Part shown: piece by piece, positions 1 through 6,978 of the stretch
Layout: each line of letters starts with the position of its first letter
Numbering within the stretch: position 1 is the first letter of the stretch
DNA from: Elusimicrobiota bacterium
Lineage (GTDB): Bacteria; CG03; SLGR01; PWQF01
Length of the DNA: 6,978 nt
Direction: 5' to 3'
Assembly (NCBI GenBank): GCA_003556865.1
Contig: PWQF01000194.1
Location: 1 to 6,978, forward strand
Program-made: the position numbers and the translations under genes
The notes under the pieces: generated by a model
Databases searched by the model: none
What the model was told of the DNA's origin: nothing
Seen by the model: the letters and a program-made list of their open reading frames with translations, nothing else

Positions 1-3000
1 GGCCGGCGCCGCCGTAGCTCTTGCCGCCGCAGGGATAATAGGTTCTGCCGCAGCGGTTTCTGTTGCCGGGGCCGCCTTAGTAGCTGCCGTAGGGCTGAGG
101 CTTATTTCCCCCCGCAGGCATAAGCCGGATGAGGGTTTCAGGGATGAAAGCCCTTCAGATGAAAGTATACTGGATCCTGTGGAGCAGTATCTTGCTTCAT
201 ACCCGGACACAGTTCAGTTCCCGGAATATACAGGCAGTTATGCCGGCAGGCTTAAGGACCTGGAAGTGAAACTGAAAGAGAAAATTGATTTAGAGCCGGC
301 GGCTTTGCTTATGGTAAATTTAACAGAAAAATTGTCCCGGCTGGATAAACGGACTTCAAATGAGCTGCTGACGGCATTATTTAACCTCCTCTCTTTAACT
401 GATTTAGCGGAAAAAAACTTTCACCTCATAGCAGCGCTTATAAATGAGCGGGAAATAGAGGATTCAATTATACTGCTGGGCAAGATAGCGCATAAAATCT
501 TTTCAGGAGAAAAGCCCGCTGCGGAAAGCCAAAACAGGCAGAAATTGAGTAATCATTTTGCGGAACTGCAGGGCCTGCTTAACCTTAAAAATTCAGGCTA
601 TACCATAAAATCCGCTCCCCTTAAGCTGCGGGACAAAAAGAAAGTGTATACGGAGCTTGACGGATTAGTAGATTCGCATATTTTTGAAAAAAAGAACCAG
701 GCTTCCAATTTTAAGAGCAGCAGGAGGGTAAGTACATATCTAAAAAAGAAAATGGGAAAGGTGAAAAAAGCCATCCATAATGCCCCCGGAAAACTGAATC
801 TGGCAATAGGTGAGGAAACAGTCCGGAATATAAAATCCTCAAAATCCCCGGTTAACTTTATTCTGGATATTGAAAGGGGCGCCGCTGTAAAAGTTCTGCT
901 TAAAAGATCGGGCGGGTCAATTCAGGAGCTGCGCCAGCTTTTTTCTTCCGGTGATATTAAAGCCCAGCATCGCGGAATACTGAACGCATATAATAATTTC
1001 CCCGAAGTTCTGGTCTGGGCTTCACATGCCCTGGGAGATGATTTCAACAGGGCTCTTGACGACTGGATAAAGTCTAATCTTAACCTTGCCCCGCCTGCCT
1101 CTTTCAGTCTCTCGGCTTCCCCTCTTGATGTCAATCTCTCTATTATCTTTTCGTCTCAATACAATGCCTTTGATGAGTCACCTCTCCTTAGAGAAACATA
1201 TCTGATAAGTGATCTCAGCGAGTTAAATGAACGTTTTAACAGGATCCGCGCAAAAGAAACAGAAGAGAGAAGAACCGCCGCCCCGGGAAAATCCCTGAGC
1301 TCAAATATTATACTTGCCGGGGGAATTTCTTTATTTACTGCCCTGGCTTTTCCCGGCAGGGCTTTTGCCCTTAGCCGGGATATTATCCCTGAGTTTATTC
1401 AGACAGGCAACCCTGTTTCACTTATAGGAGCCTATGCTTTAGGAATTGGAGCCGGTCTTGGTGCAACCTACATACTTAAAAACAGAAACCGAATTTTCTC
1501 AGGACTGAAGAGGTACCTGAATTCATTTATCAGCCGTTTACGCCTATCTGCCCCGGAGGAATTAAAAGAAGCGGAAAAAACTGCTGTTGCGGATTCCCGG
1601 GCTTCCGAGGAAAGTGAATATATAGATTCTGTTACTGAAAGCGGAATTACCCCCCAGGAATTAGAAACAGAATCCGAACCCCATACTCCCCCTGCTCCTA
1701 CAAGAGAAGAAGAGTATGTTTCAGTTCTTGAGGAGATAAACCGCTATGCCCATACTCCTCTGAAACTTACCAGAACATTAAGGAAAATAACTCCCCGGAC
1801 CCTGCAGAAGCACGGGGAAAAACTTCAGGAACACGGCATCCCGGTAAAGCCTTCCACAATAATAAGGAACCCGGATGCATTAATAGAAAGAAATGAGAAG
1901 CTTAAGGGTTACGGACTGCAGCCTACCCCGGTCTCACTTACACAGAGTAGAAAGGCCTACGAGGAGCTGGATGAGCTGGCTGCCGGAATAAGGGAGCTGC
2001 CTGTCTCTCCGGAATATATGGAGGTTCTTTTAAGAATCTTTTTTGAAAACAGGAAGCATTTTGACCGCTCCCCCCAAACCAGGAATAGTTACAGTTCTGA
2101 AAAATTTCTTTCAGAGGCCCGGGAAATAACCGATTTTGCATCCGGCGCAAAAGAGATGGAATTCAGGGTGCTTAAAGATATCTTTAGAAAGGCATTCCTT
2201 CAGCCTGAGGATTACAGGGAGATCTTTTCTGAAAAACTGGAAATAGATGAAGGGCCTGTTTCTGTTTCCTCCCCCGAATTTAAAGAGTCCCTGACTCCGG
2301 GAGCCGAAGATAAGTTTGATAATTACCGTAACGAATCCGAAATAAAGGCCATCATAAAGAAACTGGCTTATTTTGATGAAAAGGAAAATAAGTGGACCGG
2401 TTACTTTTATGAAAAATATTACGGGACCCTTATGAAGCCGGAAGATGTTCTTATAATAACCGCCACTTCCGCCCAGCGCGACCTGGCTATAAATATGATG
2501 GGAGAGGTCCTTCCCCGGCCCGATAAAAGAATAATGAGCGTTCAGGACTGGTATTCTCTCAGCCCTACTCAGAGACCCGAGCCCAGGCTTATCTTTCTTT
2601 CGCTTGTAAGAAGCCAGGGGGATATTTTTCATTCACTTTCGGGCCGAACGGTCAAGGTGCATTACCATACACTGGATGACGGCATTGTGGAGGAAGTTTT
2701 CCAGATGCCCGGCGTGCTGGATATGCGGATGCCCGAAAGCCGCCAGGGCTACTATATGATAGTGAAAGTAGACCTGGAACAGGAAAAGGTGATAAAAAAA
2801 GGACGTGACTACGGCAAGAAAAAAGAGACAGAACCTACGGAAATAAGGGCTCTTTACCTTGATAAGTTTGATTTTAATACCCTCAGGCTTCAGGATGACA
2901 GGGGCGTATGGAGAGAAGCTTCGGTGGAAGTGAGAGAAAATCCTGATTTTACCCCCGAATATATAGAGGGTCTCTCTGCAATTCTGGGAAGGAAAGGGGT

Positions 3001-6000
3001 AAGGGTCATAGGTAATTACAGTACCCTGAAAGCCCTTTCAAAAACGGCGGCGGAAAAGAAAAGCCCTAAGGAGAAACAGGAAAGTGAGACCGCACAGATT
3101 CTAAGTGAAACCCTTAAAGGTATGCGGATTTCCGACAGTTTTAAAAGAAAACCTGAGAAAAAGCGTCAGGCAGTGATAAACCTGATAACCGAAAACCTGG
3201 CAACCATTAAGAAAGCATCCGATATTGAAGCTCTTCTTAAGGAAGACGGTATGAAAATCAGTGAGACTTCCGGCAGCAAACTCTTTCAGGCCCTTGAAGA
3301 GGGGGAGCTTTTAGGGGTTCCCGGGTTTACAGAAACTGTTTCATCGGCCGTAAGTGCCGCCCTTGTTCCTGTCGGGTTGACCCTCCAGGCATCTATGTGG
3401 GCCTTTGAGGAAATCCGCAAGCGGGCGCCTCCGGGACTGATTAATGCCCGGATTCTGCGGGATATATATGAAAGGAATAAAAAATCCGGCTATGTTATGG
3501 AACCCTCCGTAGAATTACGGGAGTTTGAGGGCAAACCCTTTTACGCCCAATATGTTGAATATGAAGAGAAAAGGACGGATCCCGAATGTGTTCTCTGTCA
3601 AGATAAGTTCCCCTCCGAAAGAAAATACCTGAACTGGAGAAAGGATTATCTGGTTACCGCTAACGCCTATTCATTTTTTAACAACCAGATTGATCTTATT
3701 AGCAGGGCCCACCGCCCCCAGGATATTGACGGGGATACTTTCGGAGATGTATTGGATTTTCATTCGCTGACAGGTTTCAGAGTGGGTTTTAACCAGGCCG
3801 GCGCAGGATCTACGCGGCCCGGACATATGCATTTTCAATCTTCCGATCACCGGTTTCCGGTTGAGGATATGCCGGTAGAGACCCTTGGTATAAGAAGCGG
3901 GGTGAATGTCGGGCTTGTAAAAGATTATCCGGCAAAGGCAATTGTGCTTGAAGGAAAAACGGAAAGGCAGTTAAGAGAAGTCGGGGAGAAAATGTTTTCC
4001 CTGCTTGAAAAGAACGGTCTTAAATACAATCTTCTGTTTGCTCCCGGAGATGAGGGTCTTAAAAGGGTTTTTATTTTTCCGCGCACCCAGGAATCCCCTT
4101 CAGATTTTGATGGCAATTTCGGTTATCCTGAAATGGCCGGCGTTAAGATAGAGACCGACCCAAAACTTTTCGCCGACCCTGACCTCGGAGGCAGGTTTGA
4201 AGCTGCCCTTGAAGAAGTGAGCAGCGGGGAGGAGACAGAGAGGTTTTTAGAAGATATCCGGGATATCTTTAAACAGGTCGTTATTTTCCTGGGCCCCGCC
4301 GGTTCCGGTAAAGGAACATTTACTTCTATGCTCTCGAAAGATATTAAATCAGTCCGGTCCATTTCAATGGGTGATTTGCTCAGGGCTGTACCCGCGGACC
4401 ATCCCCGAAAAGAGGAACTGGACCGGCTTATGTCCGAAGGAAAACTGGTTCCGGCTGATATTACCTATGAATTACTGGGCGAGAGCATAGAGAAAAAGCT
4501 TGTCTCCAATCCCGAAGAAATCATTATTATAGACGGAGCCCCCCGTCAGGTAGAGCAAATTGAAAATCTCAGGCAGATGCTGGATAAAATTGGCATTTCA
4601 ATTGCCGCGGTTGTCCATCTCGAGGTAAGCAAAGAGGAAGAACTTTTAAGAAGACTGAAACTTAGGGGCCGCCCTGACGATACAGATGAGGCCATAAAAG
4701 AGAGGCTTAAAATATACCGGGAGGAAACTGTTCCGGTTATAGAATATTTCAGCAATGAAGGAGAGGAAGTCTTAAATGTGGATGTTTCTGACCCGTCTGC
4801 GGAAGTTAATTATGCCAAGCTCCTTTCCTATCTTTCAAATGTGGGGAAGTTGGCCCCCATTCTTCCGGAAACTGACCGGCCGGAAGAGGTTGTCTCTGAA
4901 GAGGTTGAAGATAGGGTGACGGAGACCGAAACCCGGGAAGAGAGGAAGGAAGAGCCTCTTCCTTCCGAGCAGGATCTGGGGGAGGAAAAAGAGGATAAAC
5001 AGGCCCCTGAGGTCACTGAACGGAGTGCCTCCAGGAATATGCTTGCACATCTTTCCCGCACCAGGGAGTACAGGCAGTCCGTCCGGGAGCAGATAGAAAA
5101 TATAGAAAAAGAGGAGAGAGAACTTGCCTCGGATATTTATCAAATGTATACGGATTTTTATATTCAGGAATACGGTCAGGACGGGTGGGAAGAGTTAAAG
5201 CAGAGAGAGCTTGAAAAATTCCGGAAAAAAGAGGCGGAGGCCAGGAGAAAATATGAGGAGAGAAGAGAAGCAGGAACACTTCCCGAGCGGGCCCGGGGAA
5301 TAAGCCTTATAAACCCCTGGGGTTTGATCTTCTTTCCTGAAAAGTACGGGGCTCTGACCGGTCTCCCCTTTAAAAACATTGAAATACGGTCAAGGGATTT
5401 TAGTTCCGGCTGGAGGGGCCCGGTCCATTTTGTTACTTCCCAGAAAACCCCCCAAAGCAGCAGCGATGCAAGGGCGGCTATGGAGCATTTTGGCATAGAC
5501 GGTGAAGCTTTGCCTTACGGGAAAGAGATAGGTACCGCCGAACTTTATCATGTTATTGATTTCAGCCCTGATGCGGAAGGTTTTGCTTTGTGGAACGTTT
5601 TAAAAGAAGACCCTGATTTTGCCCACAGGGTTATTTTCCCCTGGATACCGGAGTGGGGCCGCCGCGCCGGGCTTCTGTTTATGAATCCTGAAGCACTGGA
5701 GGAGCCGCGGGACGCAAAAGGGGCTTTAGGCCTTTTTGACTGGGAAGAGGCTCAGGAGGAAAGGGAGAGCGTTGACGATTCAGAAGAGGAAGCCATTGAG
5801 CCCGGTGAATGGGACCGGTTCCTGAATGACTGGAATAAAGATTTTCAAGCCAAAAAGCGCAAAAAGGAGTCTCTGATACGGGAAACGGTGGCTATGGTAA
5901 GGTCACTGGCCGGCGCACGGGGAATGGAAAGAGGCCGCGCGGGAGAGATTACTAATGATATGCTTTCTTTACTTAATACGGCCCGTTCAGGATTGGATGA

Positions 6001-6978
6001 GAGCTTAAATGAGCTTTTAAGCCGCCTTAGGGAGGAAGTAAGTCCCGGAGAAGGGGAGAGGGTTGCGGTTGCAGTTGATAGAGCCGGAAATATTGAAAGA
6101 ACTCCCCTGAAGGGGATTTCAGAAGAGGCCGCGCTTCCGGCCGGAAAGGGAAGGCTTGCTGTTGTTTCTCCTGATGAGACTGTCCTGGCTTTTACTAACC
6201 AGGAACGTGTATATATCGTGGAAGAGGGAACCCTCTCTCTTAATAAGGGAGAAGAAGTTACTGCCCTGGCCGGAGTCAATACATCTAAACCGGGGCAGTA
6301 TGTGGTCTTATCCACCAGGAACGGGCGGGTAAGGAGAATGAGCCTGGATAAGCTGGTCCCGTTCGCAAAAAGCAATAAAAAAATATTTACCTTTAAGGCC
6401 GAAGAACCGGATGCAATACATTCCGTAGAAGTCACTGACGGCAACCAGCAGCTTCTGCTTGTCTCTTCAGAGGGGCAGGCTCTCCGTTTCAGGGAAACCG
6501 ATGTTCCCGAGCATGTTACGGAGGCCACAATGGGTGTAAGGGGCATTCAGCTTCCCGGGGATGATTATCTTGTTTCAATGACCGCCCTGCCGGCTGATTC
6601 TTCTATGTCGGTTATGATTATGACGGATAAAGGATATGTGAAACGCTCCCGGGCCGAGGGATATCCTCTCTTTAAGAGGGATGAAGTTGTCTATAGCACT
6701 CCGGGCCGCTGGAAGGAAATGATGGGTAAATCAATTATAACATCCGGCCGGGTGTCGGATGTTTTTCTGGTTGATGATTCAGACCATATACTGGTTGCTT
6801 CGGAAGGAAAAATAATGAGGAAGGAACTGGACCATGTGCCTGTCAAAGACACCCCTTTTGAGGAAGGAATGGAATTTATCTCTCCTTCTGAAACGGAACA
6901 CTATATGGCTGCCGTAATTCCCGGCGGCAGGGATATAAGTTCGGCTATGAGTTCGGATGAGTGGAATGAATGGTCGGA
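1..6978 (+). CDS. Giant multidomain membrane-anchored protein, partial at both ends
   Basis: One reading frame (codons starting at position 2) runs without a stop to 6976, about 2,325 complete codons, so both the start and the end of the gene lie outside the window. Modules in order are: transmembrane segment (residues 1-34), helical region (35-433), transmembrane hairpin (435-492), acidic linker, two 26-residue repeats (597-648), an unassigned region (649-1166), a HIT-like phosphorylase domain (about 1167-1419), adenylate kinase (about 1426-1613), acidic linker and coiled coil, an ASCH-like domain (about 1768-1900), and a GyrA-type C-terminal pinwheel (about 2017-2325). Codon use is even throughout, with frequent AGG, AGA and ATA, which argues against a chance open frame or a chimeric assembly. 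Recognisable domains all in the same frame confirm that it is coding. No whole-protein family is recognised and the overall function is unknown. Very long mosaic proteins of this style are known in Omnitrophota; assignment to that phylum is inference. Confidence 0.95.
2..103 (+). other. Transmembrane segment at the left edge of the giant protein
   Basis: Residues 1-34 are almost entirely Ala, Gly, Val, Leu and Ile and contain no charged residue until an Arg near residue 32. They are followed at once by a basic cluster (SPRRHK). This is long enough for one helix, or for a helix whose beginning lies outside the window. The basic flank after it suggests, by the positive-inside rule, that the following chain is cytoplasmic. 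It could also be the h-region of an internal signal anchor. The true N-terminus is not visible. Confidence 0.7.
104..1300 (+). other. Unrecognised helical, partly basic region of the giant protein
   Basis: Residues 35-433 begin with an acidic stretch (DEGFRDESPSDE) and continue as mostly helix-forming sequence rich in Leu, Lys, Glu and Asn. A strongly basic patch lies around residues 216-265, with several Lys-Lys and Arg-Arg pairs. Around residues 355-400 the sequence becomes Ser/Phe/Leu-rich. I recognise no family, catalytic motif or repeat. By position it is the soluble segment between two membrane-associated regions. It could be a scaffold or a nucleic-acid or phospholipid-contacting module, but nothing seen decides this. 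Confidence 0.5.
1304..1477 (+). other. Transmembrane hairpin of the giant protein
   Basis: Two hydrophobic helices are visible. The first (residues 435-457) starts NIILAGGISLF and ends near GRAFAL; the second (about 472-492) contains LIGAYALGIGAGLGATYIL. A short loop of about 14 residues with Arg, Asp and Glu separates them. Basic residues flank both outer sides: RAKETEERR before the first helix, and KNRNR plus LKRY after the second. By the positive-inside rule both ends face the cytoplasm and the loop faces outward. The first helix ends in an Ala-Phe-Ala that resembles a signal peptidase site, but an internal cleavage here is not supported by anything else. Confidence 0.7.
1547..1714 (+). 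other. Acidic Pro/Ser/Thr-rich linker
   Basis: Residues 516-571 are dominated by Glu, Ser, Thr, Pro and Ala, with few hydrophobic residues. This is typical of a disordered linker. It joins the membrane hairpin to the soluble part that carries the helical repeats and the enzymes. Confidence 0.6.
1790..1945 (+). repeat. Two tandem 26-residue helical repeats
   Basis: Residues 597-622 and 623-648 align without gaps as two 26-residue units of the pattern (T/N)Px(T/A)Lxx(H/R)xEKLxxxG(I/L)xxxPx(S/T)-like, with about 7 of 26 identical positions (P, L, E, K, L, G, P). A third unit may begin at 1946 but diverges quickly. The layout (Pro-capped helix, EKL, Gly-hydrophobic turn, then a Pro-initiated second helix) recalls alpha-helical nucleic-acid-binding repeats such as mTERF motifs. 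With only two clear copies I would not assign the family. The nucleotide copies are diverged, so this is not a recent DNA duplication. Confidence 0.55.
1946..3499 (+). other. Unassigned region of the giant protein
   Basis: Residues 649-1166 contain no family I can name. Residues about 665-770 look helical. Residues about 812-960 look mixed alpha/beta: a hydrophobic strand (DVLIITATSAQRD) leads into a helix, followed by several beta-type stretches (TVKVHYHTLDDG, YYMIVKVDLEQE, EIRALYLDKF). Residues about 1010-1110 are Lys/Glu-rich helices. A moderately hydrophobic helix around residues 1117-1138 (VSSAVSAALVPVGLTLQASM) could be a buried or amphipathic helix rather than membrane-spanning. The last part leads directly into the HIT-like domain. 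No catalytic signature is evident. Confidence 0.5.
3500..4258 (+). other. HIT-superfamily nucleotide-sugar phosphorylase-like domain (DUF4922 / GDP-hexose phosphorylase type)
   Basis: Residues about 1167-1419 have the order of motifs expected of the GalT / GDP-hexose phosphorylase branch of the HIT superfamily. An entry strand (FYAQYVEYEEKR) leads to CVLC (C1196, C1199), then HRPQDI, then FRVGFNQAGAGST, then HMHFQ (H1275, H1277, Q1279) followed by FPVE, and finally an FPR strand and a MAGV strand near the end. In GalT-type enzymes the second His of HxHxQ is the nucleophile that is transiently nucleotidylated, and CxxC can bind a metal; the equivalents here are H1277 and C1196/C1199. In plants VTC2 uses this fold to phosphorolyse GDP-L-galactose, and bacterial DUF4922 proteins show a similar CxLC and HxHFQ layout. 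The key residues are intact, so activity is plausible, but the substrate is unknown. Adenylate kinase follows within about ten residues. Confidence 0.7.
4277..4840 (+). other. Adenylate kinase domain, short-lid type
   Basis: Residues about 1426-1613 form a full nucleoside monophosphate kinase domain, which would catalyse ATP + AMP = 2 ADP or a related exchange. The P-loop GPAGSGKGT is intact (1431-1439, Lys1437). It is followed by SMGDLLR (Arg1461), GKLVPADI, DGAPRQ (Arg1515), an Arg pair at 1550-1551, GRPDD (Arg1557) and ERLKIY (Arg1568), then TVPVIEYF. These correspond to the AMP- and phosphate-binding arginines of known adenylate kinases. The lid between the arginine helix and GRxDD is only a few residues, as in eukaryotic AK1, and lacks the Cys4 zinc lid. 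Odd points: Met1456 replaces the Thr of the usual TGD motif, and Ala replaces Phe in DGFPR, so nucleotide preference may be altered. Length (about 188) fits a short adenylate kinase. It is fused in frame after the HIT-like domain. Confidence 0.9.
4862..5281 (+). other. Acidic linker followed by charged coiled coil
   Basis: Residues about 1621-1680 are very rich in Glu and Asp (for example EEVVSEEVEDR) and look disordered. Residues about 1681-1760 switch to alternating Arg/Lys and Glu with hydrophobic residues at heptad-like spacing (EQIENIEKEEREL; later LEKFRKKEAEARRKYEERRE), consistent with a coiled coil or a single long helix. It separates adenylate kinase from the ASCH-like domain. Confidence 0.6.
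5303..5700 (+). other. ASCH-like (PUA-fold) domain
   Basis: Residues about 1768-1900 resemble the ASCH family. Near the start is INPWG (Pro1772, Trp1773) where ASCH proteins have a PW motif. Next comes FKNIEIRSRDF (Lys-x-x-Glu-x-Arg, Glu1794, Arg1796) matching the K-x-x-E-x-R element. Then WRGPVHF (Arg1805, Gly1806) matches the RG-hydrophobic strand, and LPYGKEIGTAEL matches the G-x-x-x-G-x-hydrophobic strand. ASCH is a beta-barrel related to PUA, linked to RNA binding or modified-nucleoside hydrolysis. The tail (about 1858-1900, IFPWIPEWGRR) is not a motif I know. The call rests on motif order only, and the catalytic status is undetermined. Confidence 0.5.
5701..6046 (+). other. Charged helical linker before the GyrA-like domain
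   Basis: Residues about 1901-2015 start acidic (EEAQEERE, DDSEEEAIE), pass a Lys/Arg-rich patch (FQAKKRKKE) and end in a predicted amphipathic helix (LNELLSRLREEV). No family is recognised. In true GyrA the pinwheel is preceded by the breakage-reunion core; nothing here resembles that core, and no active-site Tyr context is seen. Confidence 0.5.
6050..6976 (+). other. DNA gyrase A C-terminal-like beta-pinwheel, six blades
   Basis: Residues about 2017-2325 match the GyrA/ParC C-terminal domain, which wraps DNA around a beta-pinwheel. Blade starts are visible at about 6056 (VAVAVDRAGNIERTPL), 6179 (VLAFTNQERVYIV), 6296 (YVVLSTRNGRVRRMSL), 6443 (LLLVSSEGQALRF), 6602 (VMIMTDKGYVKRS) and 6776 (ILVASEGKIMRKEL). 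Six blades and about 309 residues agree with full-length GyrA C-terminal domains. The closest stretch is blade 4, where GQALRF followed by MGVRGIQL mirrors the GyrA pattern GxALRF...GVRGI. The GyrA box (QRRGGKG), needed for negative supercoiling, is absent or reduced to AGKG, and blade 2 lacks its usual ARG-containing insertion. There is no gyrase catalytic core in the window. A role in DNA binding is inferred. The frame remains open after the last blade. Confidence 0.85.

What the first reader, a model, noticed from the sequence alone, without database searches (positions are those of the whole stretch)
1..6978. One stop-free reading frame fills the whole window: a giant protein of more than 2,325 residues
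No stop codon occurs in the frame starting at position 2 and the frame is open at both ends, so the full protein is longer still. It carries at least four recognisable but unrelated domains plus membrane helices. No described protein with this architecture comes to mind. Giant mosaic proteins are known from Omnitrophota, but their functions are mostly unknown.
Basis: partly seen in the sequence, partly recalled or inferred. Interest (0 to 1): 0.8.

Follow-up and report, generated by a model that had tools for sequence, protein, structure and literature searches.

The report
Fragment of a giant mosaic protein
The whole window is one unbroken piece of a very large, probably membrane-anchored bacterial protein that strings together enzyme-like modules normally found in separate proteins; giant proteins of this sort are known from little-studied bacterial groups, but this combination of nucleotide-handling modules appears to be new.

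Summary
Confirmed: frame 2 is open over all 2,325 codons; the other five frames carry 62-185 stops each. Synonymous codon usage is homogeneous across five segments, so no sign of a chimera. Modules over Pfam cut-offs: DUF4922 (GalT-like; HxHxQ and CxxC kept), a short adenylate kinase with its motifs, and gyrase-A pinwheel blades without a GyrA box. Weaker: a truncated helicase-like (AAA_12) piece, a phrog_3193-like domain, one strong and two marginal hydrophobic stretches. Cysteine is nearly absent (2 of 2,325). Single modules recur in three other long mosaics with other neighbours: a 4,045-aa Elusimicrobiota protein, a 1,321-aa partial Elusimicrobiota protein (kinase, 41%) and a 1,443-aa Omnitrophota protein. 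The window is thus most likely a fragment of a domain-shuffled giant protein of the Elusimicrobiota/Omnitrophota type. Full length, organism and localisation could not be tested, because no genome is held. Most likely working: a membrane-tethered chain whose neighbouring DUF4922 and kinase modules process nucleotide sugars and nucleotides; that step is inference. Known kind, new architecture as far as the limited searches reach.

The parts
2..6976 (+). single stop-free frame, 2,325 codons, open at both ends; fragment of a larger protein
2..112 (+). residues 1-37, Ala/Gly/Val-rich hydrophobic stretch, the strongest transmembrane candidate
   Evidence: hydropathy peak 2.19
1295..1477 (+). residues 432-492, two marginal hydrophobic stretches (432-450, 474-492), possible helical hairpin
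   Evidence: peaks 1.70, 1.61
1760..2050 (+). residues 587-683, segment shared with the 4,045-aa Elusimicrobiota protein P0002
   Evidence: 28%, E 2e-8
2321..3238 (+). residues 774-1079, segment shared with P0002; its first ~100 residues weakly resemble the second RecA half of superfamily-1 helicases (AAA_12), without a first half or Walker A site before it
3584..4171 (+). residues 1195-1390, DUF4922 / GalT-like module; CVLC at 1196-1199, HMHFQ at 1275-1279
4277..4774 (+). residues 1426-1591, adenylate (nucleoside monophosphate) kinase module with P-loop GPAGSGKGT (1431-1439), DGAPR (1511-1515) and RPDD
5369..5845 (+). residues 1790-1948, domain matching phrog_3193 (unknown function)
6233..6892 (+). 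residues 2078-2297, DNA gyrase A C-terminal beta-pinwheel blades; no GyrA box

Best explanation
A genuine internal fragment of a giant mosaic protein of the kind found in Elusimicrobiota and Omnitrophota. Hydrophobic stretches near the start of the window anchor a long, almost cysteine-free chain along which modules are strung that also occur, in other company, in other long proteins of these bacteria. Two of the modules keep their catalytic motifs and probably work: a DUF4922 (GalT/GDP-hexose-phosphorylase-like) unit and, next to it, a short adenylate kinase. The truncated helicase-like piece cannot be a helicase on its own; the gyrase-type pinwheel lacks the GyrA box and is at most a binding surface. 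Shown: the open frame, the modules, the motifs, the shared segments. Inferred: membrane anchoring, export, catalysis, module exchange, and that the two enzymes act in sequence on nucleotide sugars and nucleotides.
For: Open frame of 2,325 codons. Homogeneous synonymous codon usage over five segments: 174 of 300 shuffles reach the observed heterogeneity. Shared segments with three other long proteins whose remaining domains differ: P0002, residues 587-683 and 774-1079; P0009, kinase at 41%; P0010, the second half of the DUF4922 module, twice. These three share nothing with each other at E up to 1. The window kinase groups with that of P0009 (support 95/96) against 10 kinase sequences from plasmids and 3 modules of a repeat protein, with 8 residues unique to the pair among 15 rows, the A of DGAPR among them; best plasmid-borne kinase 35%. 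HxHxQ and CxxC align with DUF4922 and GalT proteins. Cysteine 0.08-0.10% in the window, P0002 and P0009 and 0.21% in P0010, against 28 of 3,133 (0.89%) in 13 control sequences. Published context: giant ORFs over 20 kb are common in several Omnitrophota classes (PMC10066038, passages); huge proteins are enriched in Elusimicrobiota and Omnitrophica (PMC11573180, passages).
Against: Full length is unknown; 2,325 residues alone do not meet the published 'giant' thresholds. No genome, so the cysteine depletion may be organism-wide; 5 of 10 control kinases also have no cysteine. No signal peptide can be seen because the N-terminus is outside the window; in P0010 the signal-peptide-like start was not flagged by the 19-residue scan (peak 1.54, threshold 1.6). 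Kinase branches are long (0.81 and 1.83), and stand-alone proteins under 1,279 aa were never candidates in the protein searches, so no housekeeping kinase of these phyla was compared: the pairing could be plain descent. Two scans of genome contigs (84,980 species) confirmed no relative, at the low sensitivity of six and two short peptide patterns. Both structure models were too poor to use (mean pLDDT 38 and 37).
Confidence: 0.55

Rival explanations
1. The chain is a structural surface protein (coat, adhesin or spacer) that has captured pieces of housekeeping genes as building material; the modules are relics without catalytic function.
For: The helicase-like piece has no Walker A site before it and only a sub-threshold second-half match; the pinwheel lacks the GyrA box; one of the two DUF4922-like copies in the relative P0010 has lost the first His of HxHxQ (QLHLQ), and neither copy aligns a CxxC. 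Published giant Omnitrophota ORFs are read as adhesins or coat (PMC10066038, passages).
Against: The window's DUF4922 and kinase modules keep their motifs although they are only 20-41% identical to the relatives found; unused relics would be expected to lose them.
Confidence: 0.25
2. Several ordinary genes run together by sequencing errors or misassembly.
For: Modules resemble known stand-alone genes; a GTG lies about 20 codons before the kinase (residue 1406) and an ATG about 30 codons before DUF4922 (residue 1166).
Against: No stop in 2,325 codons of one frame and no change of frame at any border; uniform codon usage; none of the nine Shine-Dalgarno-like in-frame starts lies just before a module; a lone helicase half or gyrase tail is not an ordinary gene; the 587-1079 segment also lies inside a single 4,045-aa protein.
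Confidence: 0.05
3. A large multi-enzyme or DNA-associated protein that faces the cytoplasm, not exported: kinase, DUF4922 unit, helicase-like piece and gyrase pinwheel act on nucleotides and nucleic acids in the cytosol. (Not exclusive of the other readings of the anatomy.)
For: The three modules over curated cut-offs belong to families that are otherwise cytosolic (localisation recalled).
Against: Hydrophobic stretch at residues 1-37 and near-absence of cysteine also in three relatives. P0010 starts with a signal-peptide-like stretch by eye, hydrophobic over 11-15 residues (peaks 2.6-1.9) but below the 19-residue threshold used elsewhere.
Confidence: 0.2

Closest known systems
P0002, hypothetical protein ACFLUV_05715, Elusimicrobiota bacterium, 4,045 aa
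   Same: Residues 587-683 and 774-1079 aligned in order at 28%; long, cysteine-poor (4 of 4,045), one hydrophobic stretch
   Different: No DUF4922, kinase or gyrase match; only weak sub-cut-off matches (NucS_C, AAA_12, DUF4143) and one HExxH motif
P0009, nucleoside monophosphate kinase (partial), Elusimicrobiota bacterium, 1,321 aa
   Same: Adenylate kinase module at 41%, DGAPR, same tree group, cysteine-poor (1 of 1,321), two hydrophobic stretches
   Different: Other domains are ROK and PRTase-CE
P0010, AB1629_08275, Candidatus Omnitrophota bacterium, 1,443 aa
   Same: Two copies of the second half of the DUF4922-like module (30% and 28%)
   Different: No Pfam domain at E up to 0.01 in the library here, so no kinase or pinwheel seen; one copy lacks the first His of HxHxQ
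Giant ORFs of Omnitrophota (e.g. Velamenicoccus archaeovorus, 39,678 aa; passages of PMC10066038)
   Same: Very long single frame, transmembrane helices, few annotated domains
   Different: Domains named in the passages seen are adhesion-related (discoidin, laminin G, dockerin), not nucleotide enzymes; length here unknown
DUF4922 and GalT proteins; plant GDP-L-galactose phosphorylase group
   Same: HxHxQ and CxxC align with two DUF4922 proteins and one GalT; one group of plant GGP proteins is assigned to the DUF4922 superfamily in PMC9871823 (passages)
   Different: Identity 20-24% to the plasmid-encoded DUF4922 and GalT genes; substrate of the window module unknown

Membership tests
Giant/huge proteins of Omnitrophota-Elusimicrobiota | Single ORF over 20 kb (PMC10066038) or protein over 5,000 aa (PMC11573180) | not testable with these tools
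   Window is 6,978 bases and open at both ends; no genome held
Giant/huge proteins of Omnitrophota-Elusimicrobiota | One uninterrupted frame with transmembrane helices and few annotated domains | tested here: met
   (helices by hydropathy only: one strong, two marginal stretches)
Giant/huge proteins of Omnitrophota-Elusimicrobiota | Comes from Omnitrophota or Elusimicrobiota | tested here: inconclusive
Adenylate kinase (PF00406) | Profile match with P-loop, DGxPR and RxDD motifs | tested here: met
   103 bits against cut-off 26.8; motifs in alignment; below the NCBIfam cut-offs in the 25 of 34 rows shown, so a divergent member
DUF4922 / GalT-like | Profile match with HxHxQ and CxxC | tested here: met
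   43 bits against 23.6; motifs
DNA gyrase subunit A | GyrA box and N-terminal cleavage domains | tested here: not met
   Only C-terminal blades matched; no Q[RK]RGG[RK]G in the 2,325 residues
Superfamily-1 helicase (AAA_12) | Two RecA halves with Walker A | tested here: not met
   Only a sub-threshold match to part of the second half; no Walker A pattern before it

The most novel reading that the evidence does not exclude
Elusimicrobiota/Omnitrophota-type giants carry a repertoire of exchangeable nucleotide-handling enzyme modules on a surface-anchored, nearly cysteine-free chain; here a nucleotide-sugar phosphorylase next to an NMP kinase forms a two-step unit (nucleotide sugar + phosphate to NDP + sugar phosphate, then 2 NDP to NTP + NMP) that harvests sugar phosphates and nucleotides from prey or host cells at the point of contact.
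Probability: 0.1. Interest if true: 0.75.

Novelty: new variant of a known kind. Interest (0 to 1): 0.42.

Why it matters
What bacterial giant proteins do is an open question; the published examples I saw are read as adhesins, coats or polysaccharide degraders. This fragment shows that such a chain can hold nucleotide-metabolism modules with intact catalytic motifs, and that single modules recur in other mosaics with different neighbours. That gives small, expressible pieces (the DUF4922-kinase unit of about 450 residues) with a definite biochemical prediction, which a 40,000-residue protein does not offer.

Tried and rejected
Separate genes joined by errors: rejected as unlikely. Virus or plasmid origin: 8 of 8 viral-contig scans confirmed no relative. 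Tblastn of residues 560-1433 found 4 plasmid records (annotated DUF4922 or galT) and 5 unannotated phage records, none covering 80% of the query; tblastn of the kinase found 37 plasmid records, annotated as kinases where annotated; residues 1743-1960 found nothing in either. Anti-phage defence: no PADLOC match in the window protein or P0002. Structured RNA and tandem repeats: none. The domain at residues 1790-1948 looked ASCH-like to me by eye (recalled motif), but Pfam gave no match at E up to 10 to the piece containing it and the PDB search gave only weak matches (E 0.35 and 1.1); I do not claim it. phrog_3193 rings in 2 of 14 control genomes, ASCH in 5 of 14, with one (Thermus composti) in common: not decisive. 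No phage member of phrog_3193 was reached by tblastn. Matches of the 774-1010 segment to sacsin (4 of 5 PDB rows, best E 0.5) are treated as chance but not excluded. Both AlphaFold models were too poor to search with, so no fold search was made.

Limits: the protein searches consider only 0.55 to 1.75 times the query length (about 1,279-4,069 aa; about 2,225-7,079 aa), so longer giants and short stand-alone proteins were never candidates. Of the 8 hits, P0003-P0006 were not read beyond the table; P0007 and P0008 hold several kinase and NDK modules and were set aside as unrelated architectures. The kinase tree uses 10 of the 37 plasmid records (dropped: 17 of Rhizobium and Sinorhizobium, 10 others) and 3 of the 5 kinase modules of P0007. 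Of those 10, L008, L009 and L012 were read from the match, not from an annotated start, and L005 is a piece of a longer gene; of the 3 DUF4922/GalT controls, the Bacteroides finegoldii one is the end of a longer protein. The phage records were not opened. Pfam numbers listed beside P0010 (PF26216, PF26217) remain unnamed: the library here lacks PF26217.

Full report
Observation. The frame starting at base 2 has no stop in 2,325 codons and runs off both ends. The other five frames contain 62 to 185 stops each. By base composition such an open run has a chance of about 1e-58. The frame also has homology in three firmly recognised modules and two weaker ones, so it is coding, not merely open. Synonymous codon choice does not differ between five segments cut near the module borders (174 of 300 within-amino-acid shuffles are at least as heterogeneous). 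No tandem repeats and no Rfam family were found.

Anatomy. Residues 1-37 are a strongly hydrophobic Ala/Gly/Val stretch; 432-450 and 474-492 are marginal. Residues 587-683 and 774-1079 match, in order, the 4,045-residue Elusimicrobiota protein P0002 at 28% (E 2e-8 and 7e-33). The first hundred residues of the second segment point, in both proteins and at overlapping profile positions, to AAA_12, the second RecA half of superfamily-1 helicases, but below the curated cut-off (E 0.15 and 0.005; P0002 also). There is no Walker A pattern before it, so it cannot be a complete helicase. Residues 1195-1390 are a DUF4922/GalT-like module: 43 bits to DUF4922, tblastn matches to DUF4922 and GalT genes on plasmids, and CVLC and HMHFQ at the positions of the CxxC and HxHxQ of those proteins. 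That the motif carries the nucleotidylated His in GalT is recalled knowledge. Residues 1426-1591 are an adenylate kinase with short lid: P-loop, DGAPR and GRPDD in place. Residues 1790-1948 match phrog_3193, a family of unknown function (E 1.6e-10 within the whole protein, 6e-12 for a piece). Residues 2078-2297 are gyrase-A-type pinwheel blades; a GyrA box is absent.

Relatives. The first (whole window) found only P0002, and the second (P0002, residues 2900-3320) found only P0002 itself. The third (DUF4922 plus kinase region) found eight proteins. Two of these, P0009 (Elusimicrobiota) and P0010 (Omnitrophota), were compared with the window; two (P0007, P0008) hold several kinase and NDK modules; four (P0003-P0006) were not read beyond the table. 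P0009 shares the kinase at 41% and otherwise holds ROK and PRTase-CE domains. P0010 holds two copies of the second half of the DUF4922-like module, one with the first His of HxHxQ lost. P0002, P0009 and P0010 share no segment with one another at E up to 1: each shares a different module with the window. In a tree of 15 kinase rows the window and P0009 group together (95/96), with 8 of their 74 shared residues unique to the pair. Their branches are long, and no housekeeping kinase of these phyla was available, so this may reflect plain descent. Two scans of genome contigs and eight of viral contigs confirmed no relative (16, 27, 36, 37, 79, 80, 81, 88); these scans need short exact peptide patterns and mostly find close relatives.

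Cysteine. The window has 2 cysteines in 2,325 residues, both in CVLC; P0002 has 4 in 4,045, P0009 1 in 1,321, P0010 3 in 1,443. Thirteen control sequences from plasmids have 28 in 3,133, but 5 of the 10 kinases among them have none. Cysteine depletion is common in exported proteins (recalled), so it fits export, but an organism-wide bias was not excluded.

Working. The best-supported reading is a membrane-tethered mosaic chain with at least two probably active enzyme modules side by side. DUF4922/GalT-like enzymes cut or transfer nucleotide sugars (recalled); a neighbouring NMP kinase could interconvert the resulting nucleotides. The motifs are shown; activity, substrate, coupling and export are inferred. 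The rival that the modules are captured relics on a structural chain is fed by the truncated helicase half, the missing GyrA box and the damaged copy in P0010.

Known context. Giant ORFs are common in several Omnitrophota classes, many with transmembrane helices, and are poorly annotated (PMC10066038, passages). Huge proteins are enriched in Elusimicrobiota and Omnitrophica (PMC11573180, passages). A PVC-related large protein with carbohydrate and toxin-like domains is described in PMC12057145 (passages and one section). The preprint on giant genes cited there is not held. I saw no description of a giant with DUF4922, adenylate kinase and a gyrase pinwheel in the listings or the passages read; these cover open-licence papers only.

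Verdict. It is a new variant of a known kind; interest is moderate, because the module pair makes a testable prediction while the mechanism is still inference.

Noticed in passing
window 1-6978: Near-absence of cysteine (2 of 2,325), matched in three relatives; methionine is also scarce in the first 800 residues (4 of 800).
   Followed up: partly
window 5369-5845 (residues 1790-1948): Domain matching phrog_3193, an uncharacterised family of the phage library that also rings in Thermus composti and Methanosarcina acetivorans; by eye it recalls an ASCH domain, unconfirmed.
   Followed up: partly
window 5845-6546 and 2111-2632, minus strand: Antisense ORFs of 233 and 173 codons opposite the long frame, probably shadow ORFs of its codon bias.
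   Followed up: no
P0002, residues about 1563-1619, 1982-2012 and 3638: Weak, sub-cut-off matches to NucS_C and DUF4143 and one HExxH motif (3638) in the 4,045-aa relative.
   Followed up: no
P0009, residues 977-1101: PRTase-CE domain beside the kinase in the Elusimicrobiota mosaic; the name is that of a family linked to biological conflict (recalled).
   Followed up: no
window 1760-1900 (residues 587-633): 'NPD-L-x-R---L---G'-like helical pattern that recalls mTERF-type repeats by eye; Pfam showed nothing for this stretch.
   Followed up: no
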